DNA of 64,000 nt from contig CM038922.1 in assembly GCA_021904315.1 (NCBI GenBank), positions 16,591,347 to 16,655,346 on the forward strand. Direction: 5' to 3'. Numbering within the stretch: the stretch's first letter is position 1; every line of letters starts with the position of its first letter. The notes below the pieces were generated by a model. That model saw only the letters and a list, made by a program, of their open reading frames with translations. It was not told the DNA's origin and did no database searches. Positions 642 to 62,392 of the stretch are shown here, piece by piece. The stretch comes from Sphagnum magellanicum (lineage: Eukaryota; Streptophyta; Sphagnopsida; Sphagnales; Sphagnaceae). The position numbers were made by a program, and so were the translations under genes.

Positions 642-3038
<2,397 letters not shown>

Positions 3039-9071: not shown

Positions 9072-9072
9072 A

Positions 9073-9409
9073 TGTAAAAGCTAGTTGTCAAACACACCTT
9101 ACTTATAGACTTTAAAGTAATTAGGTAGTTCGTTGCATGCAAGCAAGTATGTAAGCTTAAGTGAACTAATGCCATAACTAATGCCGAATGTAAACTAAAA
9201 TTGTTTTCACTCTAGTATTGGAGAACTTGATTAATCACTGACCTTCACCATTTTGTTAAGTAGACTTGCTAAAAACTTCTATAACAACTTCTATAGCATC
9301 GTAGGATCTTGATCACCATTTCCTCATGAATTTTTTCATGTATAAATATTACCATGTATTTTGGGTTATATCTTGTAATCCTTGATTATAGTAAAACATA
9401 AGTTCTTCA
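9073..9409 (+). repeat. Ty1/copia 5' LTR (337 bp)
   Basis: This 337-bp segment starts with TGTAAAAG and ends with TTCTTCA, and it matches 31945-32281 over its full length, roughly 80% by eye. It is followed by TGGTACTAAAG, a degraded version of the usual copia primer-binding site TGGTATCAGAGC. A copia gag-like reading frame lies downstream. The 5 bases before it are GAATA and those after the matching LTR are TAATA, compatible with an aged target-site duplication. It is the left end of a badly decayed element. Confidence 0.8.
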
Positions 9410-9545
9410 TGGTACTAAAGTGATGGTCAAGTTAACATGATTCAAATATAGACTAAGAGTTGCATTTCATTGTTTTATGTAATAAGCAATTCATTGAGAA
9501 ATATACTAGTTGTGATTGAAACTTGATCAAAGGTAAAACTAGTTC

Positions 9546-9785
9546 TTGTTCATTAGTATTACAATCACCAATTACAAGAAAATGGTTGCGTTAGAAGGTG
9601 GATTTAGTGTGTTTGAAGTAAATAAATTGCTTGGTCCAATTAACTATGGAATCTTGAAGGTTAAGGTTAAAACAATATTCAAAAGGGAGAAACTTTGGGA
9701 GATTGTTTATTCTGAATATGACGCATCTTATAATGCAGATAATGCATATAGTGAAATTGTAGTTGAGTTGTCAAATAGATCGTGA
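9546..9785 (+). pseudogene. Ty1/copia gag N-terminus, truncated
   Basis: This 79-residue frame has the pattern seen at the start of plant copia gag (DUF4219/UBN2-type): a short leader, then LLGPINYGILKVKVKTIF and KREKLWEIV, equivalent to the usual F-G-NY--WK-KM----KE-LWE. It sits 136 bp after the 5' LTR, where gag should begin. The rest of gag and the protease are missing: homology stops by about 9850 and a MITE-like element starts at 9907. It cannot make a working capsid protein. Confidence 0.7.
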
Positions 9786-9906
9786 GCTTATATTCTTCAA
9801 AACATGAAGAATAAAACTTTGAACATATTAATTATGGCAGTCAATTATGAGATCATTCCCTTCATAACTAAGGAAGATAATTCAAAGGTTTGCTAAAAAA
9901 TACTAT

Positions 9907-10480
9907 GGGTGGTTGCAAGCTAGGGTGGCTCAATTCCAGTAGATGTTCCACTCCCTAAAAGTCCTTATTGTAATGTTAAAATGGTAGTCTATTTTGACAT
10001 CATTAATTTAGTGGGGAATTACATGGTGGTTAATGAACAAAAAAGCCCATATGAAGAATAGTCATTGTAAACAATTCTTTAATGTACATGTTAAGAAAAT
10101 AAAAATTGAAATGCACCCAAAAATGATTATGATATGGATTTATGAAAATATGGTTCATTTTAAGCCATTCAAAAATCCATAAATTTTTTTTGGCTAAATT
10201 TTTTCTAACAATTTTTTGACATATGTTCTTTTTGTTTTAACCTATCATATTTAGAATCCTTACAAAATATCCCAAATGAAATTCATACACGAAAATGCAT
10301 GTATATAGAGGCACAAACAACAAACTGGTCCATATTTTTCAAGTTCAAAAGTCCATTACTATATATTTGGTGTATATATGTTGCAATTTTTTTTATGAAT
10401 GTTTTTTCTTTAAGTTGAAAATCTAAATCTAGCCACAAATTTGGAAAATTATTGTTTTTATGGCATGTTGATAGCATGAA
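9907..10480 (+). mobile_element. MITE-like element, copy 1, right end truncated
   Basis: It starts with GGGTGGTTGCAAGC and aligns along nearly its whole length with 12605-13190 in the same orientation. Shared phrases include AAAATGGTAGTCTA-like, GGGGAATTA, TAAAATTGAAAT, CATATTTTTCAA-TTCAAAAGT and TTTTATGGCATGTT. The similarity stops at about 10480, before the right terminal inverted repeat seen in copy 2. There is no coding sequence, so it would have depended on a transposase made elsewhere. It lies in the gap where the copia gag and protease were lost. Confidence 0.65.
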
Positions 10481-10518
10481 AAATCATCACAAAAGGAAAG
10501 AGAGATCCCCTCAATGGT

Positions 10519-11440
10519 TTGTATAAACTTGATTTGAACATGCTAGAAACTCACATGTGTGTAGTGGATGAATTCGTTGAAGTAGAAGTCTGGCACCGGA
10601 GGCTAGGTCATGTAAACATTGAACTTAGAATGTCTATAACATGGAGGGCATCAAGACTTTGTAAACTACCAATAGTGCACAAGATCTATTCAGGATTGTA
10701 TGTTGGCATAACAATAAAAGGAAGTTATCCCAAAGCAGAGCCATATTATGGCTAGAGAGAAGAATGAATTCATACATTTGGATATTTTTGGACCAATGCC
10801 TTGTTAGTCACTGTTGAGATTAAGATATTTTATTACCTTTATTAATGACCATTCATGGAAGACATGGACATGTTTCATGTGTGCAAAGTTGGAGGCCTTT
10901 GAAAAGTTCAAACATTTCAAACAATTTGTAAAAAACAAGGAAAGAAAAATAATCAAGATTTTAAAATAAAATCAAGGAAGAGAGTACATGTTTGGAAAAT
11001 TCATCAAAATTTGCCAAGAAACAAGCATTGTAAGGCAACTTATTCAAGCATCAACACCACACCATAATGGTGTAGCAAAAAGAAAAAACAAGACGTTATT
11101 AAAGAAGGCACAAAGCATGGCATTGGTGTGTAATTCCCTAACTTACCTATAGATGGAAACCATCAACACTACCACAAATTTGTTAAATAGATGCGCTACT
11201 AATGCAAACAATGAAATTAGCCCTGAAGAAAAATACTTAAGGGTACTTTTGAAAGTTGATAACTTGAGAATTTTTGGTTCATTAACATATGTGCATGTGC
11301 TAGAGAACGAACAAATTAAGTTAGATTCTTGAAGCACCAAATGCATGTTGGTGGGTTTTGACAGTTCCACAAAAGGTTATAGATTCAACCTTTGGACTAA
11401 AAAAATAGTGATTTCAAAAGATGTGGTGATAGATGAATCC
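10519..11440 (+). pseudogene. Ty1/copia GAG-pre-integrase and integrase relic
   Basis: The first frame carries VEVWHRRLGHVN, the GAG-pre-integrase motif with its zinc-binding histidine pattern. After a frame change near 10755 the integrase core follows: FIHLDIFGPM (first Asp), FITFINDHSWKTW, NQGREYMFGKFI (second Asp position replaced by Asn, with a stop beside it), STPHHNGVAKRKNKTLL (the catalytic Glu position is Lys), then GSLTYVHVL and GYRFNLWTKKIVISKDV. Stops occur near 10805, 10966, 11146 and 11330. At least two of the three D-D-E catalytic residues are lost, so this integrase is dead. The order pre-integrase, integrase, RT is that of copia. Confidence 0.85.
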
Positions 11441-11855
11441 ATATGAAGATTGCAACAAATCATGTGACTGCAATGTGTTGAACACAGTGACATGACAATG
11501 CTGTCGTCCATAGAAGTAGAAATTGATCCAATTGGAAAACAAGATGAATGTCTAGGAGATAACCAAAAGTTCTTGAGTTGTTGCAAGATCAAGCATCAAT
11601 TATAGAGAGCCAATTCTGTTGCCCAATCCAAGAAGTTATGAAGGACAACAACTTTAAGTTCAAAGGTCAATTCAGGTGCATAAACCTTCAACAAGACTCA
11701 CAAGAGATTTTGTGTTGCTTGCTTTGTTCAAATAACTAAACACTTATGTTGAATTGTGAGCCACCTTGGATGGGAACACATAATGAGTTAAAAGCTAGAG
11801 TTAATCAACAAAAATCAAACGTGAGAGATTGTGGAGTGACTAGAAGGAAAGTTAC
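11440..11855 (+). other. Degraded copia spacer between integrase and RT
   Basis: In an intact copia element this is the variable linker between the integrase C-terminus and reverse transcriptase. Here it is full of stops and shows no recognisable domain until the RT motifs begin near 11860. Confidence 0.5.
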
Positions 11856-12604
11856 CGATCACATCAAAATGGGTCTTTAAAACAAAGCTAGCAGTAGATG
11901 GAACCATTGAAAAACTCAAGGAAAGATTAATTGTGCAAACATGAGGCATTGATTACGAATAAAAATTTGTTCCCACTGTGAAGTGAACAACCATACATGC
12001 AATTGTGAGTCTTGTTGTTTGAAGAAATTGGCCAATCAAGCATTTGTATGTTGAAACAACCTTTTTGAATGATGACCTTGACGAGATGGCACTGTTCATG
12101 GAGTTGCCTAAAGGGTTGTGTTAAGAAGGAGGTTCATTTAAAGTCTATAGACTTCAAAAGGCAATTTATGGGTTAAAGCAATTTGAATGTATTTGGTACA
12201 TCAAGATTGATAGGTTTTTGCAAGAACAAGGTATGACTAGAAGTGCATCTGATCACAATTTGTACTTTTGTAGAAATGAAAGTCTTTGTGTGGTAATAAT
12301 GTCGTATGTGGATAATCTCTTACTAACAAGGGATGATATAACCAAGTTGTAGTTCCTAGAAAATAATTTAGGGGGGTGTTTTGAGATGTCTAGGGTAGGC
12401 CTTTTCTTTCTTTACATTGGAGTGTAGTTTATTTACCTACCTCAAGGTGTTTTATTGTTATAAAGAAACTATGCATACAAGTTGTTAGAAAAGTATAAAT
12501 GCAAGATTGTGTACCTATTGGCACCTATGGAAGCAAGTTTTAAGTTACAAATAGATATGGGCACAAAAGAAACATATTATTCTTATTATCAAAACTTGGT
12601 AGAT
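11856..12604 (+). pseudogene. Ty1/copia reverse transcriptase, left part
   Basis: RT signatures appear in order with several stops: KWVFKTKL, GIDYE-KFVPTVK, WPIKHLYVETTFLNDDL (motif A; the usual D of DVK-AFL-G is changed), MELPKGL, YRLQKAIYGLKQ, then the catalytic box as MSYVDNLLL, in which the second Asp of YVDD is Asn. The frame runs to KETYYSYYQNLVD and is cut at that point by a MITE-like element at 12605. The missing continuation resumes after the MITE at 13252. It is inactive. Confidence 0.85.
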
Positions 12605-13251
12605 GGGTGGTTGCAAAATAAGGTGGATCAATTCTAGTGAATAAATAGTCCATAAAAAGTCCATTCGGTAGTGTTAAAATTGTAGTCTACTATGATATCA
12701 TTGTGTAAGTGGGGGATTAAATGTGGTTAATGAGATAATAAAGATTATGTGAATAGAAGCCCAACTACATAACTCTTTAACATGCATGTTAAAGAGAAAA
12801 AAAATTGAAATCCGTCAAAAAATGAATATGATATAGACTTTTGAAAATAAGGTCCATTTAAAAACATTTAAAAGTCCATATCTTCTTTTGGGTTAAATTT
12901 TTCTAATAATTATTTTACATCTATGTCATTTAAAAATATATATATATCATATATTGAATCCCTATAAAATAACCTAAAAAAAATTCATAAACAAAAATGT
13001 ATTTGTATTAAGCCATAAACAAAAGACCAATCCATATTTTTCAACTTCAAAAGTTCAATACTCTATGTTTGGAAAATACATGTTATATTTTTTTAATGTA
13101 GATGTCTTCTTATTCAAGTTGAGAATCTTAATTCAACAGAAAATTGGCATAATGAGGATTTTATGGCATGTTAATGACATGTTAATGCATGACACTCTGC
13201 AAAACTTGTAGTGTGACACAAAAAGTGGTCCACCTTAGCTTGCACCCACCC
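12605..13251 (+). mobile_element. MITE-like element, copy 2, with terminal inverted repeats
   Basis: It begins GGGTGGTTGCAAAATAAGGT and ends with TTAGCTTGCACCCACCC, whose reverse complement GGGTGGGTGCAAGCTAA matches the start, so terminal inverted repeats are visible. Length is 647 bp with no coding. It interrupts the copia RT frame: the residues before it end in QNLVD and the frame after it resumes with NFIYLINTRP, as expected for an uninterrupted RT. A target duplication is unclear; GAT on the left and AAT on the right may be a degraded 3-bp one. The superfamily is not certain. Confidence 0.75.
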
Positions 13252-13716
13252 AAATAACTTCATATATTTGATTAACACAAGACCAAATTATTGTTTTTAG
13301 TCAGTTGTATAAGTAGGTTCATGTCTGCACCACAACAACCACATTTGGATGCAACTTGTAGGATTTTATGATATATCAAAACCATGATGAGCCACATAAT
13401 ACTTTTTTCAAAATTGATAGGTTTTGTGGACGTAAATTGGGTGTGAGATTTCGATAAGAGAAAATCAACCATTGGGACGATCTTTACTTATAGGAATGTC
13501 TTAGTGTATTGGAGTGGCAAATTACAACAAATAATAACTTTGTCTAAATCCCTTGTAGACAAAGTTATAGAGTCAATATGGCTTAAAGGCTTATTAGTAG
13601 AGTCGAGAGATGAACAAAAAGGACCCATGAAAATTATTCTATGATAACCAAAGTGCAATAAAACTAGTGAAGAATCTTATTTTACATGCTAGAATGAAAC
13701 ATATTGAATTCACATG
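13252..13716 (+). pseudogene. Ty1/copia RT end and RNase H relic
   Basis: Continuation of the copia polyprotein after the MITE. Visible in order: NFIYLINTRPN, then with a frame change SRFMSAPQQPHLDAT, GFVDVNW, DKRKSTIGTIFTYRN, VYWSGKLQQ, SIWLKGLLVES, DNQSAIKLVKN and ARMKHIEFT. These are the usual RNase H landmarks of copia elements. The protein breaks off around 13715, and the expected next motif is found 18 kb away at 31755. Confidence 0.85.
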
Positions 13717-13758
13717 TGCAATAATCATACTTGGCAAAAGGAAGTGGGACCTTGTATG

Positions 13759-15855
13759 TCATATTTGGATGTTGTTGGCTCCATACCAAACATGCATGGC
13801 TAATTTTTTGTAATCATCTATCCCATGGGTGGCATGGGTGCGAAGGATCAATGTGGCCTTTTCAACATTCACCTTCACAATATGTTTCAAAACCTTGTTT
13901 TTTATAAACTTGCGTTTCTTCATTTTAACTGTGTGCATGTAATGTCTTATAACCGTTGTTGTGAGCCTCCACATTAACTAATCAACTTGTTAACCTTGAA
14001 ACCCTCTTGTTTCCAAAAAAAACCAACATTCCAATGCCCCATGGTAAGATTCAATGGATGCTTGTGTGTCTTGGTTTGAATATGGCACTTGTCAAAGTCC
14101 TAACATCCACAAATTTACAATAAAATACATAATACCCACATCAGATTGTTTGGATCATTAGTGTTTCTACTATAATTCAAGGAGTGGATATTTTAGGATA
14201 TGCACAACATGGTGGAACAACAATAATGGATTGGGAACTCAGTCATGTACTAAATTCGAAATAATAGGTTCAAAAGTATCGAGTCCATGAATCTTTAAGC
14301 AAATGTTGGGTGAAGCTTTCAATGACCTTGTTTCTCCCATGAGTCATGAAGGTTTCAATGTTTTCACTTAGTTCAATGGGCATGTACATGATGGTGTGAA
14401 GGTCATTCAATATTGCATGTCGCACCCCATTGTCCTTGATTTTTTCCATCGAATGTAAGCGCCAAGCTATTAAAATGTAACATGTGTAAAGATGAATGGG
14501 CATTTGTTACTCACCCCACCATCCTAACCATGCATAAAATATTAATTTATAAATATTTCAATTAACAACATTATTTAAAATGGAAAATGTGAGATGAAAA
14601 TTTGAAATGGTTACATGTACATAAAAGCTTATAAAAGGTAGAATGAAAATAAAACTCACCATAATGTTTGTAATTCTTGTGGAACATCATCAATAATGAA
14701 ACATGAAAGTTTCCACTTAAGGTTTTTCCTTAGAAGCTTTGTTTTCAAATGAGTTAACCACTCCACTAAATCATTGCGTGTTTGGTGGCTTGTAATGATC
14801 CATGCAATTGACATTTTTGTGCAATGTGCATCAAACACCATCAATGTGAATAAGTGAAATTTCACATCATTGGTGTTGAAGGTGGCATCCATTGAGATTA
14901 CCCCATTATCACTTAATGAAACCATGGATTACAATTGAGATGGGGTTTGTATCCTTATTGTGAATGAGACATGAATCCCATTAATGTCACTTGCATCTTG
15001 AAAATAAAACACATCATTTGAATCATTAAATGCACATGTATGAAGGGAAATGGCTGAATTTTTGTGTAAATGAACTCCTTTTGTGTTTGTAATCCAAATG
15101 AACAATGTCTTGTTATTGAGTGAAATCGTCACTTGTCATCACTTTTCTTGCATTGATTCTAGCCCACTATATCACTTTATGCTTGTCGTATATTTATGTG
15201 ATGGTGTACCTAAACCCAATTGAGTCCAAATGTGGTCCTTGAGGGCTTGTGACATTCATGGGGGGAAAAAAAAAGGTTGTGTAATGGAATCATAGGCATG
15301 CTTGCCGTGCACATGTTCACCATTGGCCCATGTATGCGATCGATGGTAGAAGACTATTTTTGCCACCTTGGGTCGTGTGTACAATTGTCTAATTGATAAT
15401 TGAACTAAACAACCTTGTTTAATGGGTCAAAAGTGGTTTGCATCTCCACAATTGTCCTCTTGGCCATACCCACATGCATATCTACAAAATATGTAATCAA
15501 TTTAAGGCCTAAGGTTGGGTAGGATATGAAGATTTAAAAAACAATTATATATCAAGAATGAATAATAGAACATCATACCAAATATGGCCAAGGCAATTTT
15601 AGATTTTTAACATTTTGACATTTGCTTAGGGGGTACCTACTTATAAATGTTCCATTTCATCAAGGAATCTTCATGGCTTTGTTCACCATTTAGAAATTTT
15701 GAAAACCATGGATGTGGGATATATGCGTATTCAACTTCAATTATATGTGTTCCTCCATGTCGAACATTCTTTGTCCACATTAAGTCCATGTTGTTGAAGG
15801 GTGACTTCCTTGGGTTTTGGATCTCAATAGATTGAGAATTTGAAGCACAACCCAT
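13759..15855 (-). pseudogene. MULE (Mutator-like) transposase relic
   Basis: Reading leftwards on the minus strand, segments of a MULE-type transposase appear in order. An N-terminal piece lies at 15855-15637. A stop- and frameshift-rich stretch follows at about 15490-15135. Then come 15132-14929 (DVFYFQDA, FTIRIQTPSQL), the catalytic core at 14925-14656 and C-terminal pieces at 14503-14270 and 13974-13759. The core shows ISMDATF with the first catalytic Asp, then KFHLFTLMVFDAH, WIITSHQTRNDLVEWL and FIIDDVPQELQTLW. A plausible GT donor directly follows the core near 14658, so the original gene probably had introns. Stops and frame changes are frequent, so it is inactive. Terminal inverted repeats were not found. 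It forms the left part of the insertion in the copia element. Confidence 0.8.
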
Positions 15856-16508
15856 GTTTGAAACTAAATGTGAACTGATTATACAGTAAAAGATGATAAA
15901 TTGATATCAATGTCCAAAAAATTATACTTGTAAAACTTTTAATTACATGTTAATTGTCATATTTCATACTAATGCAAATGGACACATGTTCCAAGTACTT
16001 GATCTGTATTCCTCATCTAAACCTTGTACAATCATACACACAATACCCTAAATGGTAAGTATGGAAAATATATGATATGGTCTATGGCCATAGTTGTAAA
16101 TATGAAATTGCAATATCTATGATTGTAAGGGTCAAAACCCAATGGATTGAGGAGTTCTTTATATCATTGAAAAGATATTGAAATGTAAATGTCTGAAATG
16201 GGCTCGCATCACCCATTTGGACATTTGAAACACAAGTTATGGCCAAAAGAAGGGTTGGGAGTCAAATTGGTAGTTGGACTCTTGACCACTAAAAGTCAGG
16301 AATCGACCCGATTTCCTTGCTTGTAGGTGGCGTGCAACATACCGTTGGAAAGCTCTTGACAAGGGCTATAACTTTGTTTCAGACCTCATTTTAATCAAAG
16401 GTCTGCACACAAAGTTATGGGGCCCCAAAATCATGGGAGTCCCAACTTTGGCAATTTCGGGACTCCCACTTGGGAGTCTTGGGACAATATGCCATTTGGA
16501 TGTGGGCC
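15856..16508. other. Left flank of the LINE
   Basis: There is no gene. From about 16120 the composition becomes less AT-rich. A 10-bp perfect stem, TGGGAGTCCC at 16434-16443 and GGGACTCCCA at 16459-16468, is visible. If the LINE is removed, this flank joins 24157 onwards, which has a TATA-like ACTATAAAAGGG. The two flanks may therefore be halves of one older LTR or promoter-like sequence, but I could not define its ends. Confidence 0.4.
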
Positions 16509-16524
16509 TCGTGGAGAGGCACAG
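16509..16524. repeat. Candidate LINE target-site duplication, left copy
   Basis: The 16-base sequence TCGTGGAGAGGCACAG occurs here and again, without mismatch, at 24141-24156. The two copies bracket the LINE just beyond its ORF2 end and its 5' leader. That is where a target-site duplication made by target-primed reverse transcription should be. Confidence 0.7.
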
Positions 16525-16560
16525 GGTGAACCCCATGCGGGGAGGGAGGCAACATCCCCT

Positions 16561-19500
16561 TCAATCATTATCAGAAAAAGAGAAGTACAGAGGTGGGAAG
16601 AAGTGCCACCGAATGGTGGCGTTATCACTCCCGAAGATATTCAGATGCAACCATTCAGTCCTAAAGGCAAGCTCAATTCTATCTTGAATTTCTAGGTCTT
16701 TGTCGGGCTTGGGGGCTCCGATGGCCTTCCAGATGGCCATGCCGACTTCGACAATGGCCACCCAGGCTTGTTGAAGAACTTTGTTGAGGGAATAGCAGTC
16801 GTCAAAGTGCTTGTGGCACCTCTCGGACCAGAGGTAGTAAAGAGTGAAGGTGCGGAGGATGTCGAGAGGCTGCCTGAGGTAGGTGAAACCGCCAGTGTGG
16901 TAAGCGTGGAGGCCGGGAGGGTCGTCCTCGCGTTCGATGGAGGCCTCTCCAAGCAAGACAAATGGCCAGTTGATGGTGATGTCCTCAGGGGCTTTCCATT
17001 CCTCCCAGACTCTCCTGAAAGCCACCCAGGCGCGTTGCGCAAGAGGGCAGTCCAGGAGGCAATGCTGGGGGGACTCAAGGGTCCCGGTGTCGCATGTGTT
17101 GCAAGTGGGAGGCATTCCCATCACCTACAGCCAGGTCCCAGTTGGGAGACCCTGATTAAGGGTTAGCCAGATCAAGGTGCCAACCTTCCTAGGACGGGCG
17201 TTGTGCCATATCCTGGCGACCACCTGAGAGGTGGTGGAGTTTTTGAGGTCAAGGTCGTTGATGAACTTGATGATTCTAGGTGAGTGAGAAGGCCCCTTGG
17301 CGTTTCTGTAGCCCCTTTTGGCAGTGTAGCCAAAGAAGGGCGCATCGCCGAGCGGGTGTATTTCTTTCCAGTGCCATTCCCTTGGATCCTAGGGGAGGTT
17401 CTCGATAAAGCCTGATTCAAAGATCTAGAATGTTGTGTTCTTCTGGTTGACAGAGGGAGGGTCTCTGGCAACTTTGAGGGAGGCGCCGTGCTTTTCTTGC
17501 GAGAAAACTCTAACCGAGGAAAGGTTGTGGTGGAGAAGGGAGTGGATATGGTAGCTCGTGGCCAGAAGCTGGCCGCTGACAGAAGTTCTCCTGAATTCCA
17601 GCGCCAGGACCTTGTCGGAAAGGGAGTCCATAACGTAGTAGACGCATTCCAGCAGCTCGCCCGATTGAAGGGCAGAGTTGCTGACCCAGTCACTTGGTTG
17701 AGCCCAGGAGCTGAAGGAGTTGGGTCACTTGGGAATGCTCTCTAAAATAATGTCTTTGGAGGCTCTGTTGGAGGCATGAAAATGCATTCCCAAGTCAGAT
17801 AGGTTCTTCCATTCTTGCGCCTCTCGGTTCCAAAGGTCTCTGATTCTGGTGTGCCCGGAGCGTGCGAAAGCGCAACCCTCGTTCTGGCCGTTCATTCCGA
17901 GAGGCAGACCTCTTGAGTTGGTGAGGGATGGGTTTCCGAAGAGAAGCTGCCTGAGCAGTTCCGCCCTGTTTGCCGGGTCTTCCTTGGTCAGACCTGGTCG
18001 CACATTGATCCATGCCCCGAAGATGCTCTTCCACATGGAGTAGGGCGTCCTCTTGAGCTTGGGTGCGACGAAGATCCAGTTTATATCTGGAGTGTTGGGT
18101 CCTTTGCCATGGACTGGAGCTTGCTCTGATTAGCGTGATGTCTGATCAGCTCTTTCCAAGGTTCCCCGCCTGGGGCTAGGCCCCACACCAGCAGCTTTGC
18201 GAGGAATGCCTCCGACTGGGTTTTGGGGTCGATTATGCCCAGCCCCCCTTTGGCGATGGGTAAGGTGAGGGTGTCCCATTTCACCTTAGCCCGGGAAGGC
18301 GCAACTTTGCCCCCCCAAATAAAGTTCCTTACCACCCCACGTACCTGGCTGCACATCCTAGGATTTGGGTTCCAAGATGCGGCCAGGTACCACATTGATG
18401 CCAGAAGAACTTGGTTGGCTACAAGTATCCTTCCCGCGAGTGAAAGGTTACTATGGCTCCAGTTGATCAATTTCCCTTTCAAAGCCATCATCATTTTATC
18501 AAAGTTTGCTTCTGTTGGGAAGCGAAAGCCAACCTGGACCCCTAGGTATCTGACGCCCTCGCCCTCGGGAATCCACTTGAGGCCAACCTCCTAGCCCCAA
18601 GTCTAGGTGTGTTCTTTCCTGCTCGCCTAGATGGCAGCGGATTTGTTCCAGTTTACCTTGGCGCCGAATGCTATACAAAACGTTTCCAAAACTCCCTGGG
18701 CCCTGTCCAGGTTAGCCTGGTCACCCTTGAGATATAGGGCTGTATCATCGGCGAAGGTCTAGTCCCTGAGTCTACCCCCTCTAGGCAGGTTCAGTCCTTT
18801 TACATCGTACCTGGGGTCTTCTAGCATGTGCCCCAGGACGTTAGTTGCTAAGATGAAAAGATAAAGCGCCAGGGGGCACCCCTGGCGGACAGGTTGGGCC
18901 AACTGGAATACTGGCCCCGCCTCTCCGTTGATCCTGATTGCGGAGGTGGCATGAAGGTACAGGGTGCGGACCCACCGCACCCAGGTGCTGTTGAAGCCAA
19001 ACTTGGACAGGGCTGTGAACAAGAAGTTCCACTCTATCCTATTGAAAGCCTTTTCGAAATCCAACAGGAGGAGGACTAGCTCCTGGTCGCTCTCCATGGC
19101 CCAGTCCAGGGAGTCCTGGGCTATGAAGACATTGTCGAGAATACTCCTGCCCTCTACGAAACCAGTTTGATTCGGCCTGATAACACCTGGGAGGAAGGCT
19201 TGCAGCCTCCCGGCGAGGGTTTTGGCCAGAATTTTATAAACACTCCCCAGGAGAGTGATCGACCTCCAATTCCTGAGTTTGGAGCGGTCTTCCGTTTTGG
19301 GAATCAGGGTGATAAGCCCCTTGTTGATGTAATTCGAAGCCTCTCCAGAGGCCAGCATGGCCGTGTAAGCTTTGAACAGCGTGGGCGCCACTTCAAAGGC
19401 GCAGACCTGGAAGAACTCAATAGGAATCCCGTTGTGTCCGGACGCTTTGCCTTTGGGCATCGCCTGGATCGCTTTGTGAATCTCTTCCAAGGTAAGATTA

Positions 19501-20919
19501 TGGGTGAGTGCTTCGTTCACATCAGCTGTGGCCCTCACCGGTACGCTCTTCTAACACCGATCCTGGGCTTCCTGAGTGCTCGGGAGATGTGTTTCCGACG
19601 AATAAAGATTGGAGTAGAACTCAGTGACATGATGGGAGAGATCAAATTGGCCTCTGACCGTGCTGCTCTCTGTTTCTAACTCTCTCAGCAGAGTTTTTTT
19701 TTGTCCTAGTTTGTGGAAGTCAAAAAAATTCTTTGAGCAAGTATCGCCGTACTTGAACCAGTTCGCGGAGGATAGATGCTGGTTGCGCGACACTTGGTTC
19801 TGGTATACCTCTACCAACTTCGCCTGGGAGTCGGACAGGATGTCCCTTACTCCTTCATTGGTCGGATCGCCCTGCAGCTGAACCTCCGCCAGTTTGATCT
19901 TTTCAGTGTGAGATTTGATTATGGCACCTTTCAGGCGTCTTTTTGCCTTTGCCAAGCGGTTGTTGCAGATCATTACCCTTTTTATGGCTGTTTCAATCCA
20001 GTATGCCCAGCCCTGGTCGCTGGGTGGGGTCAGTGAGTCTCCGGCCCAGGCTTGGAGTAGTGCTGCCTTGCTCTCCTCTTCCTCCAACAAAGAGGTGTTG
20101 AAGTAGCGCGCTGGCTTGTCGGTGCCGGTTGCCTGCCCCCAAATGGAGATGATGAGGGGTGAGTGATCCGAGAACTTCTTGATTGTGATTGCGGATTCGA
20201 TTCTCCCCCCCCCTGGAGTCAAGGTCTTGGGATACCATAAATTTGTCTATTTTGGAGATTGCGGAGTTGGCTCCGAGTCTCCCGTTGTCGAAGGTGAAGG
20301 CCTTCTTGGACATCTTCCTGAAACTGTCTGAACACCAGGCATCGGTCAGACCGTATTGAAGGGTCATGTGATGCTAGGAGGCCGCCTCCCTCCTGTGCAT
20401 CTGCCTTTCGCCGGCAGTGCCCCTGCGGGAGGTTTCCTCCTAATGGTTGAAGTCTCCCCCGATTATGGTGTTGTCGGAGTCCAGCTCAGCTTTGCTTATG
20501 GTTTTCCATAGGAGGGTTAGGTTTCTCGAGGTCTAGGTAGCATACACGTTTACAATAGTGAGCGTGCCACTGCCGGCCGCTTGCAATTTGATAAACTGGG
20601 CTCTTCCCTCCATCAGAATTCCGCTGTCCACCACCAGAGGGGTGGTCTTTCTGTCTACAAGGATGGCGGTACCAGCGCTCATTCTTTGAGAGGGGCCCAT
20701 CGGTATTCTTGGGTTCTAGAAGGTGCCCCCCTTCCAGTACTCTAAGCCTTTCCCTATGCTCCTCGTGCCCTCTATACCCAGGTGGTGTTCTTGGATGAGG
20801 AGAATTTGCGGGGGGGAGGGAAGAGAAGCTAACTAGATTTTGATCGCTTTTGGTTTTGGCGATTTACTCCCCAAACCTCTGACGTTGAGGGATGTCAGGG
20901 TGAGAGTTTTTCCAAACAT
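16561..20919 (-). pseudogene. LINE ORF2: endonuclease, reverse transcriptase and zf-RVT
   Basis: ORF2 probably starts at the ATG at 20919 (MFGKTLTLTSLNVRGLG), overlapping the ORF1 end by about 56 bp. The APE-type endonuclease shows SLNVRG, IQEHHLG, IVNVYA, IGGDFNH and SDHSPLIIS. The reverse transcriptase shows ITLIPKTED, LNWRSITLL-like, GFVEGRSILDNV, LLLDFEKAFNRIEW (motif A), VRQGCPLALYLF (motif B) and TFADDTALYL (catalytic FADD at 18755-18744). The C-terminal zf-RVT region near 17200-17000 has PPTCNTCDTGTLESPQHCL. In-frame stops are TAG at 20833, 20716, 20533, 20440, 20374, 19551, 18759, 18627, 18603, 18591, 17425, 17389 and 17125, plus one TGA at 17725. Frameshifts lie in a C9 run near 20210 and at about 18090-18110. 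It is not translatable. Confidence 0.9.
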
Positions 20920-23900: not shown

Positions 23901-23989
23901 CCAGCTTTCCTTATCCTGTGAGCTACTAAAACAAACTCATTGAGCTTGGCGGTCTGTGAATCAGCAGCATCTGAGCAGACTTCCATCAT
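20864..23989 (-). pseudogene. LINE ORF1, gag-like RNA-binding protein
   Basis: ORF1 encodes the nucleic-acid-binding partner of ORF2. The first ATG, MMEVCSDAADS, is at 23989. The N-terminal part includes two in-frame copies of a 66-codon segment (about 23690-23300) sharing LKSDGGPRGELL. A DUF4283-like region (ELVLMMQENAAKKARR onwards) follows, then a CCHC zinc knuckle CRKCRRFGHHAQSC near 22390-22350 and a Ser/Gln-rich tail. The frame is broken by a TAA in the first duplicated unit near 23570, a TAG near 23487, a frameshift in a run of 11 G at 23255-23265, a TAG at 22059 and a frameshift in a T8 run at 21558-21565. After the last shift the frame continues to 20864. At about 1040 codons it is long for an ORF1. 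Confidence 0.8.
23300..23690 (-). repeat. 198-bp tandem duplication inside LINE ORF1
   Basis: Two adjacent units with a 198-bp period are visible. For example GACCGTTGGAGAAGCTCTCC at 23373 recurs as GACCGTTAGAGAAGCTCTCC at 23571, and the sequence on either side also matches. Because 198 is a multiple of three, both copies stay in the ORF1 frame. Confidence 0.8.
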
Positions 23990-24140
23990 TGTAGAGAGAA
24001 AGCGTTTAAGAATCGACTAAAAAAAGGTGCATTCAGATAGGGAAATCATGAGCCTCTTTGATACACGCTCAGACAGCAAAGAGCTCCCATCGTCGAGAGA
24101 TGGATTGAACTTGACACGAAAAGCTCAGAGAAAGGCGGAG

Positions 24141-24156
24141 TCGTGGAGAGGCACAG
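24141..24156. repeat. Candidate LINE target-site duplication, right copy
   Basis: An exact match of 16 bases to 16509-16524, directly upstream of the LINE 5' leader as transcribed. See the left copy. Confidence 0.7.
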
Positions 24157-24454
24157 AGTATACTATAAAAGGGAAGGTGGTGGCTTCCCCCAAGTTTGGG
24201 CTGTGGTGAGTCTAAGTTTGCTCGTGGCTCGTCCTAGCGCCAAAAATGTTTCAACCATGCACTAACTAACTTGTTGTTTGGTTTGTGCAGATCTGAGTGA
24301 GTGATTAAGTGCTTGTCATTCTTCCTAGTCCCATCCCGGAACTCCAGCATGCCCTTCTACCCCTCAAAGTGCTACGAGTAAGGGAGTGTGCCCCAACTTT
24401 TTGGTCTTCCATCGTTTTCACTTCAAACTCACATTTGGAGTCTATCCAGGAGTT
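24157..24454 (+). other. Right flank of the LINE with TATA-like motif
   Basis: No gene is seen. ACTATAAAAGGG near 24162-24173 looks like a TATA box and is followed by moderately GC-rich leader-like sequence. It could be part of an LTR or of an old promoter interrupted by the LINE; this is inference only. Confidence 0.35.
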
Positions 24455-24890
24455 AGGGGGTGAGTTATAATACCTGTATGTCAATCTAAACATGCACATT
24501 ATATGTGAGGGCAAAATGTAATACTTACATTATGATTTTAAACCACACTATACATGGGAAATGAAATGTAATACTTGCATGAAAATTTAAACATGCACAT
24601 TGTATGTGGGGGCAAAATGCAAAACTTGCATTATGACCTTAAATCACATTATATATGGGAGATGAAAATGTAATACATGCATGACAATCTAAACATGCAG
24701 ACTATATGTGGGGGCAAACTATAATACCCACATTATGACTTTAAATCCACATTATTTATGGGAAAAACAAAATCAATATTTGCATGACAATTTAAACATG
24801 CATATTGTATATGAATGGCAAAATGCAATACTGACATTATGACCTTAAATGCACACTATCTATGAATGGTTAAAATGCAAATCCATATGT
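24455..24890 (+). repeat. Tandem repeat, about 102-bp unit, four copies
   Basis: A block containing TTAAACATGCACATT, a TATGTGGGGGCAAAAT-like phrase, a CATTATGACCTTAAAT-like phrase and ATGGGA--TGAAATGTAATAC recurs four times. The CATGCA landmark lies at 24491, 24592, 24694 and 24797, giving periods of 101-103 bp. A partial fifth unit follows. No coding is seen. Confidence 0.85.
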
Positions 24891-25914
24891 CATACATGGA
24901 ACATTCTTAGTGGAATTCGATGACCATATTAAATCCATCCAAGGAGATTGATTTACCTAACTTAGCAAAAAAACCAAAAAATAATAACAAAATGATTATA
25001 AAAAAATCATACCATTGATGTTAAAAGATGATGCCACATTCAAAAAAATTGTGGCATGATTTGAAACACAACCTAAATAGATCAACACACATTTCATCAA
25101 ACCCTTAATTAACCCAAAATAATCCTAATGGTGGATGGTCTCAACGAAATATTTCTACAAACAAATACAAATGGATAACAAAAAAGTCTAATAATAACTA
25201 TGTTTTGAATTTTCAAGTTAATTAATTCAAAATTATAATGAATGGAAACATTAGCCTTAAAGTTTAAAACTAATTACCCCAAAATATTTATATGTAAACC
25301 TAAAAAAATTTAGTAGTAAATGTCATAAAAATTAATAACTATATAAACATATACAAATGCCATACAAACTAATATTCTAATTGTGAATGATAAATTAATA
25401 TTGAAACATAATGAAAAGAAAAAATTAAACAAATGAAACAAGAGTTTATTCTCTTACTTTGGTGTCCTCAACTTGAGGGCCCAACTTAAGACCTTCTCCA
25501 TTCACCTTGAAAAGAGATAAAATGAGTCTTATTACAAATATTTGTATGTGAAAATCTCCCCCCAAAATCCAACCTAGGATTGATTTAATTATTATTAAAT
25601 AATGTGCAAATGTTCATAAATGTTTGATGTTTCTTTAACTTTAAGTTTATCAAGCTTATTGCTTAATTAAAAAAAATACATCTTGCATTAAATGGTCCAA
25701 AGTGGAAGCAAAAGACTACCGCCATAAAATTTCTACAATTGCAATACCTTCATTTGGGGTTAGTGGCTTGTTGTCATCACGAGTTTGAATAGGACTAAAA
25801 TAGATGTCAGTGGGTTATTTGCAATACCCACATTTTATGTTATAATTATGTTAAATACATTCAATTGAAGTCCACAATTTGCAAGTTTATAGGTAGGTAT
25901 GATGATGGGTGGGT
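24891..25914. other. AT-rich gene-free sequence
   Basis: Low-complexity, AT-rich sequence between two tandem arrays. I see no coding sequence, RNA gene or defined mobile element in it. Confidence 0.5.
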
Positions 25915-26920
25915 AGGTAGGTTTTGCCAAGAAGAAAGAGTTTAGCCAAGAAATAAAGATAATTAACCAATAAATATAAAGGTTTTATTGAGATGTAAAA
26001 AATTAGTTAGGTAATAGGAAATGTTAATAAGAAAAATATAGAGTTTTTGCCAATAGTTAAAGATTTAGCCAATAAATAAAAAGGTTTTGTGGAAAGGTAA
26101 ATACTTAAACAATAATAAATAAAGGTTTTGCCAAGTGATAGAGTTTTAGCAAAGAAAAGATAATTTTTTTGCCAAATAGTAAATGTTTAATCAAGAAAAG
26201 ATAGAGGCTTTGCTAAGTGCTAGAGGTTTAGCCCAAAAAATAGAAGTTTTGTTAAAATGTAAAGGTTTAGCTTAGAAAAGATATAGGTTTGCCAAAAAGT
26301 AAAGGTTCAGCCAAGGAGTAGAAAGGTTTTGCTAAGAGGTAAGGTTTAATCGGGGAGTAGAAAGGTTTTGTTGAGATGTAGAAGTTTAACTACGAAATAA
26401 AAAGTTTTGGTAAGAAGTAGAGGTTTAGCTAGGGAGTGGAAGAGTTTTGCCAACAAGTAGAGGTTTAATTAGGGAGTAAATTTTTTTAATCAATAAATAA
26501 AGGTTTAATCAAAGAGTAGAAAGGATTTGTTGAAAGGTAGAAGTTTAGCCAAGGTGTAGAAAAGTTTTGCTGAAAAATAAAGGTTTAATTAGGGAGCAAA
26601 AAACTTTTGCCAAGAAATAAAGGTTTAGGCAAGGAGTAAAAAGGTTTTGTTGAAAGGTGGTGGAGGTCTAGCTAAGGAGTAGAAAGGTTTTGCAGATAAG
26701 TAAAGGTTTAGCCAAGGCATTGAAAAGTTTTGCCAAAAAGTAGAGGTTTAGCTAGGGAGTAGAAAAGTTTAGCCAAAAAGTAGAAGTTTTGTTAGGGAGT
26801 AGAAAAGTTTTGCCAATAAATAGAGATTTAACCAAGGAATAGAAAGGTTTTGCCGATAAATAAAGGTTTAGCTAGAGAGTAAAAAGGTTTAGCTAAGAGG
26901 TAGAGATTTAATTAATAAAG
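25915..26920 (+). repeat. One-kilobase degenerate minisatellite, about 40-bp unit
   Basis: About 25 diverged copies of a unit close to GGTTTTGCCAAGAAGTAGAG followed by GTTTAGCCAAGGAGTAGAAA. The two halves are themselves similar (GGTTT-GCCAAG-AGTA-A), so the array has a 20-bp half-period inside a 40-bp period. The + strand is almost free of C apart from the GCC/GCT in each half. No long reading frame uses it. Confidence 0.9.
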
Positions 26921-29900
26921 GGTATAAAATAAATAGGTAAAAGGGCTGGTTGTAGTTGGTGGCTAGGGACAAGATGTAGGTGAATAGGGTAGCTTGGTCA
27001 GTAGGATAGCTAGGTTGTAGGATAGTTAGGTGGGAGGGTAGTATGGAGGTTTGGGCTAAGAAAAAAAGGGCCAAGAAAAAAAAAAACCAAAAGTCAGCAA
27101 CCAAAATAAGTTGATTATGGTACTATGTTGGTTAACTAAGGGTTAGGAAGGGGGTGAAAAAAGGTGGCCCAACCTATGGACTGAATGGCCAACTTGTGCA
27201 GTCATGGGGGCCAGTTAATTTTTTTTGTTTTCGAAATGTTATTTGGATTTTTTATGCACTCATGGGAAGAATGTTTTTTAACCCATTGCAACCTCCACCA
27301 ACTACCACAATTAAGCCCCCTTTCTTCGCTTTGATTGCTTCAACAATGACATTTGCTTCATGTATTTCTTTGAGGTAGTATATACCTTACCTTGCACATC
27401 AGCTTCAAGTGTTTTGAAATCTTTCAAATCAATGTATTGCATGAGAAATCATGGAATACAACCACATTCATGGACATGCCAATATTAAAACCTTGGGTAC
27501 ATGTAGCAAAACAAAAGACCTACAATTGTATCCTTGCTTTAAATCCAAACAAAATTGATTAGGGTAAAAGAAAAGCAAGGTTCATTGTGGTGCCTATTGC
27601 AACAATCAAAGTGCCATATTGGTAAATCACCCCTACAATTGTCATCGCAATTTTGTTTTCAATATCTGCTTTTACAATTTTAGTGCTTAAGTGTAGATCA
27701 ATCCTTGCATTTGTTGCAGTGTAAAAAGCCTTTCAATATTTGCAAGTAGGTTTTAGAAAACAAAGTCCTACTTTTGAACAATTTGAGCTGAAAGCATTGT
27801 TCTTCAAACCAATCATTCCCTTTGATGCATAAACATTATTGGATTTGATAGTATAAATTTATAGATATGAACTCTAGACTTTCAAAGCATAAGAATATAT
27901 GGCACAAAGTGTAACCATTTGCAAGGTACCATTTAGGTGGTTGTTTCTTTCCGCTACTACCCACACAAACATGAAATCTTGGGAGCCTCGCAGGCCATGC
28001 CAAGGATAATTCCTATAGAGATGAGGGGAATGTTTTTCTTTTGATCAAGAGGAGCTAAGCCAATAACCCAGATCACACAGCAAACAAGTAGTTGGAAAAT
28101 CTTTGTTATTTTCCTGTGAAATACCTTTAGGAAAAATATATGTTTTCTTCAAAGCTGGTCGTTCATATGGTGCCACCTATAAGGCACAAGTATACAACTT
28201 GTGTCACCTCCACATGTATGCAATTTCTGCTACATGTTTATACAAATGTATACACATTAGATGCTTCAATGGAAGAAGCCATGCATGATGGCTTATGGAT
28301 TAGCTGTTCAATTAGAGCACACATATCAAACTCCATCAACCAACAATTGGCTTCAAATACTTGTAAAACCAGTATAAGGCTATTAGAGGTGGATTGAGAT
28401 TTGAGCAACATACTTCTTCCTTGGAAAATACAACAAATTCTCTTAGTTGAAGACCTAACTTCACAAACTCATGAGCTGCATAGCCCTACACATGAACATA
28501 AAAACTCAAATCATGATTAGGAACAAGCCAATGTTCAAAAGTACCAAAACCACTTTCCAAGATTTTCAAGAAACAAGGTCATTCATTGCATTTTCCCAGA
28601 CTAAATAGGTGATGTTTGGACTTTGAATCTCATATCCATTGACAAAATCTATCATAGCTAACATTTCAAATATTAATGTTGGTTGTAGATGTGTTTCAAG
28701 CTTCATCTCAAATCCCTTAACACACATCAATTCCATAACAAATCAATTACCCAACATTCAAAATGCAAAACCCAATAATCTTCTAAGCAAATTTTGAACC
28801 TAAGTCATGATGCGTGCTAGATCCAATTAAAGAACAAGCTTCATTTACACTTGCAACGCCTCCACTAATAATGATGTACTTGTACCTCTTTTTCGTCATA
28901 ACTTGTCCTTGTCTAGAGAGAAAGAAAGAGAGATATTTTTTTTAGAGTATTGTTTTGTTATTGGAAACTCAATTAAATTACAAAATCTGATTTTGGAAAG
29001 AGAAATTGGTTTGGTAATGAATAACAGTGTGAAATTTGGTAATGAAGCTATTTATTTTGGTGCCAAATTTCACATTGCTATGAAATTTTTTGGGGAAAAA
29101 ATAAATTGTGACAAATTCAATGTTTAAAAAAAAACTTCAAAAATAAGTAAAACCATTTAAAAAAAAAACCATTAGATATCTATAAGAATGTTAAAATATT
29201 TTCCTTTCATATTGTTTTTAGCCAAATTTAGTTAAATGGACATATGCATGATCACCACCTTAGCTGCGTCACAAAATTGAAAAACAAAAACATCCCATAT
29301 CTTTTATTAAAAAAAAACATACGTTAAAAAAAGAATATTCTCATCAATGTTTTGTTTCTCAACAAAATCTCAACTTGAAAATATAATTTCAATTTATATA
29401 AAGGATTTTCCATTGAAAAAATTGCCCAAATTCACCAAATTTAGATTTTTTCTTTTTAAATCACCATATTTTTATGAGAAGTTCCAATATGTAACCAAAA
29501 ATATACAAAGATTTTGTTTTGTTTTGTTTTCTTATCTAGCATGTAGTCAAGTCTGATTAAATCATCTTATGGATGATCACCATTTCAGCTACATCACAAA
29601 ATTGAAAAAAAACCCCTAATTTTACATTTAAATTATTAGTTTAAAGAAAAAATTGGATTTTACCGTTTGAGATAAAAAAACAAAAAATAGGCAAGTAGTC
29701 TAAGCAATGGATATTTTCATGCTAAAGATAGAAATGAAGTTCAGTTAGACATTCTTGTTGGACACCCTTGGCTTCTATCAACCATCTCGCTTTGGCCTTT
29801 TGCATTTCCTCCTCTTGTTCTTTGGTTTCTTCTATTTTTTTGCGTTATTCCAGAGAGTCCGTTCTCATTAAAAATTATTGTTTGAGGGAAGTCTAGTTTA

Positions 29901-30179
29901 GTTCGAAATCCAGGTCCATTAAACGTGGTGGGAAGCATTAGGAAATGATGGCTTTCTTTGTGCATGGTGAACCCCAAATAGTGAACTTTTTGTGTCTCTC
30001 CTCATTGTGTTTTGTGTGTTTTGTGCTTCTGTTGGTTGAAGTGCCTATTGTATTTGTTGTCATGGGGAAGATTTTTTGACCAGAAGTTGGTTTGTCGGGA
30101 GTTGGTTTTAGGTATTCAAGGGTTGCTTTAGGGTGTAAAGTGAGGTTGCAAACATTAGTTGTCGAGGGCACACGATGGA
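26921..30179. other. Gene-free region with purine-rich and AT-rich parts
   Basis: 26921-27110 is very rich in purine and T on the + strand and looks like a diverged extension of the minisatellite. The rest has only short open frames (up to about 85 codons) that I do not recognise. A 12-bp perfect stem, TGTGAAATTTGG at 29028-29039 with CCAAATTTCACA at 29063-29074, is visible. Two related blocks near 29215-29290 and 29540-29610 share GATGATCACCA and CACAAAATTGAAAAA. Confidence 0.45.
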
Positions 30180-30640
30180 GCAATAATTTCAATTTTTTGA
30201 AAATATATTGGCACTCTTTGAAGGTAGAATAAATACATTGGAAAACGAAAAAGTAAACCTCCTTGGGAAGGTAAATTAGTAAGCGGTTGTCCATAGTTTT
30301 GAGAGGCATTAGTTTACATGAATGATGGAATAGGATGCTTTGATTTGGGCATCATTCTTTGTCAAAATTACATGCGGTGAAGTTTTGATGGAGGAGAACC
30401 TACTTTCCAAGCCAAACAAAAATAGAGAGCATCCAAGGACGACATGGTATTATGATAGAAAAGATGAAAACATGTTATTAGCATGGTAGCACAAATGGGG
30501 TTAGAGGTGGAGGTTTTTGTCACTTTAGTAGATGCATGGATTGAGGAACAAAATCTGAGTGCACATTTTAATCTTGGAGAGCGTGGGCATAGAGCGTCAA
30601 ATTGTCGCAACCTGTTCCATAAGTCTCCATAGTTGAAAAG
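30180..30640 (+). pseudogene. Possible gag/LINE ORF1 relic with a decayed zinc knuckle
   Basis: In shifting plus-strand frames I read LIWASFFVKITCGEVLMEE, then TTWYYDRKDENMLLAW, then MGLEVEVFVTLVDAWIEEQ, and finally HFNLGERGHRASNC, which resembles a CCHC knuckle (C--CG--GH----C) with both leading cysteines lost. The order, a DUF4283-like region followed by a knuckle, resembles ORF1 or gag-like proteins of retroelements. Several stops are present. The minus-strand open frame at 30610-30368 is a shadow of this region. Family assignment is uncertain. Confidence 0.35.
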
Positions 30641-31745
30641 TTAGTTTGCTCATCAGGCAAACTATAATTGAGTTATTTGGCAGTCCTGGTGACACTACCT
30701 TTAAGAAGACACAAATTCTAGTTGTTACATTTGGTGGGTAGCACTTAGAGAAAGGTGCTTGTGCCTAATTTTTGTCTTAACTGTTGTGATAAATTTTTGG
30801 GGTGTGTCATAGCATGTATGCTTCCTAACATATGATTTGATTTACAATGTCCAAGTTGGTAATAATATCATTCAATAGTCTCCATGTGATTTTTGAGCAT
30901 GTGCAATTCTTTTAATGTTGAGAGAAATGTGTTGAGTATCACAAGAATAATGACATCAAGAATCAAAATAGTGAAACCATGTTGAAGAACTTAGAAGGAC
31001 AATGATGAAAATGAGGTATGTATTTTTTTTGTACCCAATTTCTTTTGAAAATAAAGACTCTTTTGAATTGTTGTTTCATGCAAATGTGTTAGTAAAATAT
31101 ACCTCCAATATTTGGGTCCCTTTATTGGAGCTTGAGATTTAGCATGATGTGTTTGAATTAAATCTAATTGAGCTAATTTGAGTATTTTGTTGTGCATAAT
31201 TGAGTTAGCAACAATGAAGGTGAAAAAGTTTGTGTGCCCATAATTTTCCATGTGTGAAGATAAGTAAAAAACAAATAAATCCAAATGCTAAACATAACAT
31301 TTTTTCATAATAGCTATGTCAAGGTGATTTTATATTTGGTCACAACCTTGTAAATGAATTGGAAAAACCATTTAGTCATTTTATCATTCAGTTTCACAAA
31401 ACATTCATAATGAAAACTACAATTGAGTTTCTTTTGTTGTTGGGTGAAATGAGTGCCATTGTTGCTCCCACTTACTTCCAAGTTCTAATCCTTGCCTTCT
31501 TGCTTTTTTTTTTTTGGTTTTTTTGCTTACGGTATAAGGTAGTAGCCTAACTATGGAAATTGGAATGATGTAGTTTTCATTTGGTGTACTTATTGTGTTT
31601 AAAGAGGAATGTTCTTCTCATTGGTATTTTGATGATTGTTGTTCATTAGTTAGGTGTTAGTTATTATGAGAACATTTCTTGAGAATTTGACACAACACTT
31701 GAGGAATGTTCACAAGGTGTTATGTGTGAACTTTTCTTTTTTGGG
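30641..31745. other. Gene-free sequence before the copia 3' end
   Basis: AT-rich, with short open frames only. A 97-codon minus-strand frame at 31284-30991 has no recognisable domain. The boundary of the 18-kb insertion in the copia element should lie near 31750. Confidence 0.4.
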
Positions 31746-31749
31746 GAAC

Positions 31750-31930
31750 TTCATGAAACCTTTCATATCACCACTACATTCATGAGACAATAGAGAGGAA
31801 AGACATAAATGTTATTTATGTGCTTTCATAAGAACATGATGCCAATATTTTTATGAAACCTTTAGGAAAGATTAGATTTTAGTATTTGAGAGGACAAATA
31901 GGAATCTATGATCTTGAAATAGTATAATAG
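31750..31930 (+). pseudogene. Ty1/copia polyprotein C-terminus
   Basis: The sequence reads YHHYIHETIERKDINVIYVL, a stop, then EHDANIFMKPLGKIRF, a stop and YLRGQIGIYDLEIV. This is the standard end of copia RNase H/pol (HYHFIRE..., then ADIFTKPL...). It continues, in the correct order, from the ARMKHIEFT motif where the left half of the copia breaks at about 13715. A polypurine tract and a 337-bp LTR follow. Confidence 0.8.
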
Positions 31931-31944
31931 GGTTTGAGGGAGGG
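31929..31944 (+). promoter_or_regulatory. Copia polypurine tract
   Basis: AGGGTTTGAGGGAGGG directly precedes the LTR start TGTAAAAA. A purine tract in this position primes plus-strand DNA synthesis in LTR retrotransposons and identifies the following LTR as the 3' one. Confidence 0.75.
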
Positions 31945-32281
31945 TGTAAAAATTAGTTGTTAAACACATCCTACTTACTGACTTTAGATTAAGTAGTTAG
32001 TTCCTTGCATGCAAACATGTATGTAAGCTTTAGTGAATTAGTGTTGTAACTAGCGTCAAATGAAAATTAGCACTCTTTCCACTCCGGTGTTGGAGAACTC
32101 GATTAATCATCAACCTTCACCATTTTGTTAAGTAGACTCGCTAGAAACTTCTATAGCAACTTCTATAACACCATAGGATCTCGATGATCGTGTTCTCAAG
32201 AATTCTTTCATGTATAAATATTACCATGTATTTTGGATTATATCTTGTAATCCTTAATTACAATAAAACATAAGTTCTTCA
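31945..32281 (+). repeat. Ty1/copia 3' LTR (337 bp)
   Basis: It starts TGTAAAAATTAG, ends TAAGTTCTTCA, is the same length as the LTR at 9073-9409 and aligns with it throughout. Conserved blocks include CCTTCACCATTTTGTTAAGT and CATGTATAAATATTACCATG; the latter contains a TATAAATA promoter-like box. A polypurine tract and the copia C-terminus lie immediately upstream, so it is a 3' LTR. Confidence 0.85.
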
Positions 32282-33210: not shown

Positions 33211-33258
33211 TTGTCTGTGGTTTAACTATCCACAGTGCATTCATGCTTTCAGCTGCTC

Positions 33259-56193: not shown

Positions 56194-56258
56194 AGGTTCT
56201 GATCTGACAGTTTTGGCAGAACCTATGGATGTCAAGCTAGAATGATAATTGAAGTATC

Positions 56259-62367: not shown

Positions 62368-62392
62368 ATGAAGTTGAAGGACTCAGCTTTTT

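What the first reader, a model, noticed from the sequence alone, without database searches (positions are those of the whole stretch)
9073..32281. One 23-kb nested copia element whose protein resumes after an 18-kb insertion
The left half has a 5' LTR, PBS-like site, gag, integrase, RT and RNase H, and breaks at ARMKHIEFT (about 13715). At about 31755 the sequence resumes with YHHYIHETIERKD, the expected next copia motif, then EHDANIFMKPLG, a polypurine tract and a 337-bp LTR. Both LTRs have equal length. The outer flanks GAATA and TAATA could be an aged 5-bp duplication. About 18 kb of MULE, LINE, tandem arrays and other DNA then lies inside a single old element.
Basis: partly seen in the sequence, partly recalled or inferred. 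Interest (0 to 1): 0.75.

Follow-up and report, generated by a model that had tools for sequence, protein, structure and literature searches.

The report
Old copia retrotransposon split by insertions
An old, decayed retrotransposon has been split in two by about 18,000 bases of other DNA, including later transposons; it is a clear but ordinary example of jumping genes landing inside older jumping genes.

Summary
The LTRs are 9073-9409 and 31945-32281, 337 bp each, 281 of 337 positions identical, no gap. A profile built from seven copia proteins was run over six frames of the window (858 tiles). At E up to 1 it matches only 11768-12571, 13288-13611, 13613-13711 and 31766-31915. The left half stops at profile position 581 and the right piece resumes at 582. 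Ten shuffles stay well below these scores.

So one old copia element is interrupted by about 18.04 kb (13716-31756). The insert holds a MULE transposase-domain remnant, a LINE (16525-24140) bounded by an exact 16-bp direct repeat, tandem arrays and unassigned AT-rich DNA. The left half also carries two copies of a ~0.6-kb MITE-like repeat and appears to lack much of gag and protease.

What first split the element is unresolved: the insert ends show no terminal repeats above random, and a possible inner duplication is not above chance. The same-genome and empty-site tests could not be run, because the genome search did not complete (14 requests). Nested insertion is a well-known process; this is a new member of a known kind.

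The parts
8786..9072 (+). two tandem copies of a ~143-bp unit abutting the 5' LTR
   Evidence: TRF period 143, 2.0 copies; 121 of 142 aligned positions identical, 2 gap openings; unit start ATGTAA coincides with (A)TGTAA of the LTR start
9068..9072 (+). GAATA, possible left copy of 5-bp target duplication
   Evidence: 4 of 5 to TAATA at 32282-32286; chance 0.016-0.019
9073..9409 (+). 5' LTR, 337 bp
   Evidence: 281 of 337 identical to 31945-32281, 0 gaps
9410..9421 (+). PBS-like site, decayed
   Evidence: read by eye, 8 of 12 to a recalled motif; motif also seen after the gypsy LTR
9907..10491 (+). MITE-like insertion 1, right end missing
   Evidence: BLAST 73.5% to 12603-13194; start GGGTGGTTGCAA at 9907
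10480..11443 (+). pre-integrase and integrase remnants
   Evidence: gag_pre-integrs E 1e-8; tblastn of copia proteins over 10766-11443
11768..12571 (+). copia reverse transcriptase
   Evidence: RVT_2 E 1.6e-14; profile 125-398
12605..13251 (+). MITE-like insertion 2 with ~22-bp inverted ends
   Evidence: profile break 398 to 428 falls here
13288..13711 (+). RNase H, up to the split
   Evidence: profile 428-546 and 549-581
13716..31756 (.). interrupting DNA, about 18.04 kb, ends good to a few bases
   Evidence: bounded by the two profile matches; no copia profile match inside at E up to 1; ends without terminal repeats above random
14659..14928 (-). MULE transposase-domain remnant
   Evidence: Pfam MULE E 6.3e-8, above cut-off
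16525..24140 (-). LINE, flanked by an exact 16-bp direct repeat (16509-16524 and 24141-24156)
   Evidence: RVT_1 E 3.4e-23 at 18759-19550; direct repeat, expected by chance 2.3e-4
24468..24864 (.). tandem array, period ~101
26145..26910 (.). tandem array, period ~40
   Evidence: rows 26145-26315 and 26244-26910
31757..31944 (+). last part of the pol reading frame and polypurine tract
   Evidence: profile 582-631 at 31766-31915; polypurine tract read
31945..32281 (+). 3' LTR, 337 bp
32282..32286 (+). TAATA, possible right copy of target duplication

Best explanation
One Ty1/copia retrotransposon integrated here long ago, giving two then-identical 337-bp LTRs and probably a 5-bp target duplication. 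It decayed by point changes, stops and frameshifts, took in two copies of a ~0.6-kb MITE-like repeat, and seems to have lost much of gag and protease. Foreign DNA then entered its RNase H codons at about 13715, and more insertions landed in that DNA, until about 18.04 kb separated the last part of pol, the polypurine tract and the 3' LTR from the rest. The LINE is a late layer. The element is now an inactive fossil. Shown: matching LTRs, domain order INT-RT-RNase H, adjoining ends, no second copia pol in the window, an exact repeat around the LINE. Inferred: the order of events, and transposition rather than another rearrangement as the cause of the first split.
For: LTR pair without gap; profile continuity 581 to 582 across the split with no other match at E up to 1 in 858 tiles; shuffled tiles at most 6.1 bits in 10 replicates and reversed tiles -0.3, against 12.9 and 18.1 bits for the two pieces; copia protein L001 matched to residue 1396 at 13708 and from 1399 at 31769; 4-of-5 outer flanks; exact 16-bp repeat around the LINE, so a younger layer. 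If the right piece began at random along the 635-position profile, starting within one position of 582 would have a chance of about 0.5% (my arithmetic).
Against: Only 2 of 7 copia proteins (L001, L007) hit the right piece singly at E up to 10, with E 0.005 and 0.002, and L007 did not hit the left RNase H. The possible duplication at the inner breakpoints (6 of 7) is reached by 16% of random places. The insert ends show no terminal repeats above random, so no inserting element is identified for the first split. No same-genome copies or empty site were available.
Confidence: 0.93

Rival explanations
1. Two different copies of one copia family lie in the same direction 18 kb apart; the left has lost its 3' end, the right its 5' part, and the complementary breakpoints are chance.
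For: The LTRs differ at 56 of 337 positions, and no other family members were available to show that they are each other's closest relatives.
Against: Exact adjoining of the pieces, 581 then 582; outer flanks 4 of 5; no leftover copia pol for either piece.
Confidence: 0.04
2. One element, but the halves were separated by a rearrangement (for example a segment placed in a break during repair) rather than by a chain of transposon insertions; the LINE came later.
For: No terminal repeats and no inner duplication above chance at the ends of the 18 kb; much of 27-31.7 kb has no recognised content (39 of 41 open pieces outside the LINE scanned).
Against: The insert does contain transposon sequence, and old terminal repeats could have decayed beyond recognition. 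This rival keeps the main finding and changes only the cause of the first split; its confidence is therefore not exclusive of the best explanation.
Confidence: 0.2
3. The split is an assembly misjoin.
For: No read data were available and the source is unknown.
Against: A misjoin would not be expected to give complementary halves of one element. A 46-residue protein 98% identical to the left RNase H piece is reported from 3 JGI contigs, the longest 51,431 bases, but those contigs could not be opened, so it does not test the breakpoints.
Confidence: 0.02

Closest known systems
Nested LTR retrotransposons of large plant genomes (the kind that programs such as REANNOTATE and LTRtype resolve)
   Same: An older LTR element interrupted by younger elements; the fragments are collinear with one element and keep both LTRs. 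REANNOTATE's abstract and section 9 describe joining such fragments (PMC2672092); LTRtype seen in the search listing only (PMC5379124).
   Different: Nothing basic. Here the first interrupting element is not identified, and the insert is a mixture including tandem arrays.
PtOzark of loblolly pine (PMC3762812, passages seen)
   Same: A retroelement with another retroelement nested inside; the nested one has LTRs of about 350 bp at 81% identity.
   Different: There the ~350-bp LTRs belong to the inner element; here the 337-bp LTRs belong to the outer one. No sequence comparison was made.
Copia proteins at loci L001-L007 (named bacterial assemblies; probably stray eukaryotic DNA, inferred)
   Same: Integrase before reverse transcriptase, then RNase H, continuous over the point where the window element is split.
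   Different: Distant: about 23-46% protein identity in the copia-region matches with E below 0.01; the window element is full of stops.

Membership tests
Ty1/copia LTR retrotransposon | Two LTRs in direct orientation with TG...CA ends | tested here: met
   337 bp each, 281 of 337 identical, 0 gaps
Ty1/copia LTR retrotransposon | Integrase upstream of reverse transcriptase, then RNase H | tested here: met
   10766-11443, 11768-12571, 13288-13711 plus 31766-31915
Ty1/copia LTR retrotransposon | RVT_2-type reverse transcriptase | tested here: met
   RVT_2 E 1.6e-14, above cut-off
Ty1/copia LTR retrotransposon | Primer binding site and polypurine tract next to the LTRs | tested here: inconclusive
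   both seen in place by eye; PBS only 8 of 12; no statistical test
Ty1/copia LTR retrotransposon | 5-bp target site duplication | tested here: inconclusive
   4 of 5, chance 0.016-0.019
Ty1/copia LTR retrotransposon | gag with zinc knuckle and protease | tested here: inconclusive
   gag-like piece 9543-9782 has no Pfam family; the stretch before the pre-integrase domain seems largely missing (inference)
Nested insertion into one element | Outer fragments collinear and complementary | tested here: met
   profile 581 then 582
Nested insertion into one element | Terminal repeats and target duplication of the inserted element at 13716/31756 | tested here: not met
   terminal repeats like random; best 7-base match 6 of 7 reached by 16% of 2000 random pairs
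Nested insertion into one element | Empty site, or another copy without the insert | not tested
   The genome search unanswered in 14 requests

The most novel reading that the evidence does not exclude
The roughly 10.4 kb of insert outside the LINE entered the copia element in one event, as one very large MULE-type element without terminal inverted repeats that carried the tandem arrays and the unassigned DNA with it; the LINE came later.
Probability: 0.08. Interest if true: 0.4.

Novelty: new member of a known kind. Interest (0 to 1): 0.2.

Why it matters
It is a datable layer in a nest of transposons: the outer LTR pair gives an upper bound for the age of everything inserted inside. At the 2.2e-9 per site per year used for Wollemi pine (PMC10473749, passages), K2P 0.193 would mean about 44 million years, but the host here was not identified and a faster rate would give a younger age. 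It also shows that a distant-family profile can recognise a split element when its last codons lie 18 kb away. Otherwise it is ordinary.

Tried and rejected
Second copia pol region: none at E up to 1 in six frames; at E up to 10 three more weak places appear (2106-2273 minus, 6059-6217 plus, 59809-59901 plus, E 6.7 or worse) and are not claimed. tblastn hits at 34398-34739 minus by four copia proteins had E 1.0 to 6.1 and are absent from the profile search at E up to 10, so no copia fragment is claimed there. Hits at 61.3-62.0 kb fall in or beside the integrase region of the gypsy element. Inner target duplication: best matches 4 of 5, 6 of 7, 6 of 9, reached by 87%, 16% and 49% of 2000 random pairs. 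Terminal inverted or direct repeats at the insert ends: scores reached by 24-69% of 1000 random pairs. Inverted repeats across 13600-32300: two self-palindromes and one 24-bp A/T-rich pair only. Viral contigs: 7 and 113 pattern matches, none a relative by tblastn; exact junction word 0 matches. Rfam at gathering scores: 0. ARAGORN: 0. Protein search with an RT stretch: 6 relatives among 162 candidates; with RNase H, 1 protein among 1 candidate. A hairpin at the LINE 3' end folds no better than shuffles (112 of 200 as good). Seven of nine yardstick proteins, those over 500 aa, went into the profile. The idea that the 143-bp tandem duplication used the LTR start as a short shared word is an inference only.

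Full report
Observation. The two LTRs are real. A local alignment pairs 9073-9410 with 31945-32282 over 338 columns without a gap, 282 identical, K2P 0.193, 43 transitions and 13 transversions. Trimmed to TG...CA they are 337 bp each, 281 of 337 identical. There are 3 CG dinucleotides in the left LTR and 6 in the right, and none of the 9 places is CG in both, which fits independent loss of methylated CG over a long time (inference). A PBS-like stretch follows the left LTR and a polypurine tract precedes the right one; both were read by eye. The outer flanks GAATA and TAATA agree in 4 of 5; the chance of 4 or more is 0.016 to 0.019.

Protein content. Of 10 single open pieces scanned in Pfam, two match copia families above the cut-off (gag_pre-integrs E 1e-8, RVT_2 E 1.6e-14) and one below it (SH3_retrovirus E 2.4e-4); the two short pieces at the split and the gag-like piece have no family. 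The coding region is broken by many stops and frame changes.

The decisive test. As yardsticks I took copia proteins from seven loci in bacterial assemblies (L001-L007), probably stray eukaryotic DNA. With tblastn, L001 matches the left half up to residue 1396 at 13708 and the right piece from residue 1399 at 31769 (E 0.005); L007 matches the right piece at 43.6% over 39 residues (E 0.002) but not the left RNase H. The other five do not hit the right piece singly at E up to 10. A profile of the last 640 residues of the seven (635 positions) was then run over six frames of the whole window in 858 overlapping tiles with X at stops. It gives 125-398 at 11768-12571, 428-546 at 13288-13611, 549-581 at 13613-13711 and 582-631 at 31766-31915, and nothing else at E up to 1. 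Ten shuffles of the tiles reach at most 6.1 bits and reversed tiles -0.3 bits, against 12.9 and 18.1 bits for the two pieces at the split. So the pieces adjoin, and no second RT or RNase H was found for the right LTR.

More interruptions in the left half. The break in the profile between 398 and 428 is where a second insertion lies: 12605-13251, a MITE-like repeat with similar inverted ends. It is 73.5% identical by BLAST to 9905-10491; without gap columns 447 of 573 positions agree. The first copy lacks the right end seen in the second, and soon after it the sequence resumes in the pre-integrase domain, so I infer a deletion that took much of gag and protease.

The insert. 13716-31756 is 18,041 bases, its ends good to a few bases. 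It contains a MULE transposase-domain remnant at 14659-14928 minus (E 6.3e-8), a LINE on the minus strand with RVT_1 at 18759-19550 (E 3.4e-23), tandem arrays at 24468-24864 and about 26145-26910, and AT-rich DNA in which nothing else convincing was found (39 of the 41 open pieces of 55 aa or more outside the LINE region scanned; list). The LINE is bounded at 16525 and 24140 by an exact 16-bp direct repeat, expected 2.3e-4 times by chance in the stretches compared. An exact repeat beside copia LTRs at 83% identity fits a younger LINE inside an older element. The two ends of the 18 kb show no terminal inverted or direct repeat above random, and the best inner duplication (6 of 7) is reached by 16% of random pairs. 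What first entered the copia element is therefore unknown.

Left flank. A ~143-bp unit is repeated twice just upstream of the 5' LTR (8786-9072; 121 of 142 aligned positions identical). The unit starts ATGTAA, and a third start would fall exactly on the LTR start (A)TGTAA. I infer a tandem duplication that used this short shared word after the copia element had landed; the divergence of the units is close to that of the LTRs. This is not proven.

Not done. The host was not identified. A 46-residue protein 98% identical to part of the left RNase H is reported from 3 JGI contigs, which could not be opened here. The two halves were not joined.

Known or new. Splitting of LTR elements by younger insertions is well known in large plant genomes, and programs exist to resolve it (REANNOTATE, PMC2672092, abstract and section 9 read; LTRtype, PMC5379124, search listing). 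A nested retroelement is described in loblolly pine (PMC3762812, passages).

Noticed in passing
8786-9077: A ~143-bp tandem pair ends exactly at the 5' LTR, and its unit starts with the same ATGTAA as the base before plus the first five of the LTR; possibly a duplication primed by this short word.
   Followed up: partly
16509-24156: A LINE with an exact 16-bp flanking repeat and, read by eye, no poly(A) at its 3' end; a DUF4283-like ORF1 and a zf-RVT end are below Pfam cut-offs. A 3' hairpin folds no better than shuffles.
   Followed up: partly
55438-63162: A Ty3/gypsy-type element with LTRs 55438-56185 and 62414-63162, 702 of 748 aligned positions identical, TGGTATCAGAGC after the left LTR; RVT_1 and integrase found.
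   Followed up: no
2652-3038: Open frame matching the 40S ribosomal protein S4 C-terminus (E 9.5e-25) and KOW.
   Followed up: no
44865-45967: Minus-strand pieces of an aspartic protease-like gene; TAXi_N E 2.3e-24 on 44865-45473. The neighbouring piece 45554-45967 was not scanned.
   Followed up: no
32898-33214 and 47126-47488: An inverted repeat pair, 78.8% identical over 364 columns.
   Followed up: no
6053-6550 and 37793-38304: A direct repeat pair, 69.1% identical over 518 columns.
   Followed up: no
30560-30630: Plus-strand stretch that reads like GERGHRASNC, a possible zinc-knuckle remnant of another retroelement inside the insert; seen by eye only.
   Followed up: no
window 13504-13641 (protein P0127): A 46-residue protein 98% identical to this decayed RNase H piece is held from 3 JGI contigs, the longest 51,431 bases: perhaps the same locus in another sample; not openable here.
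   Followed up: no
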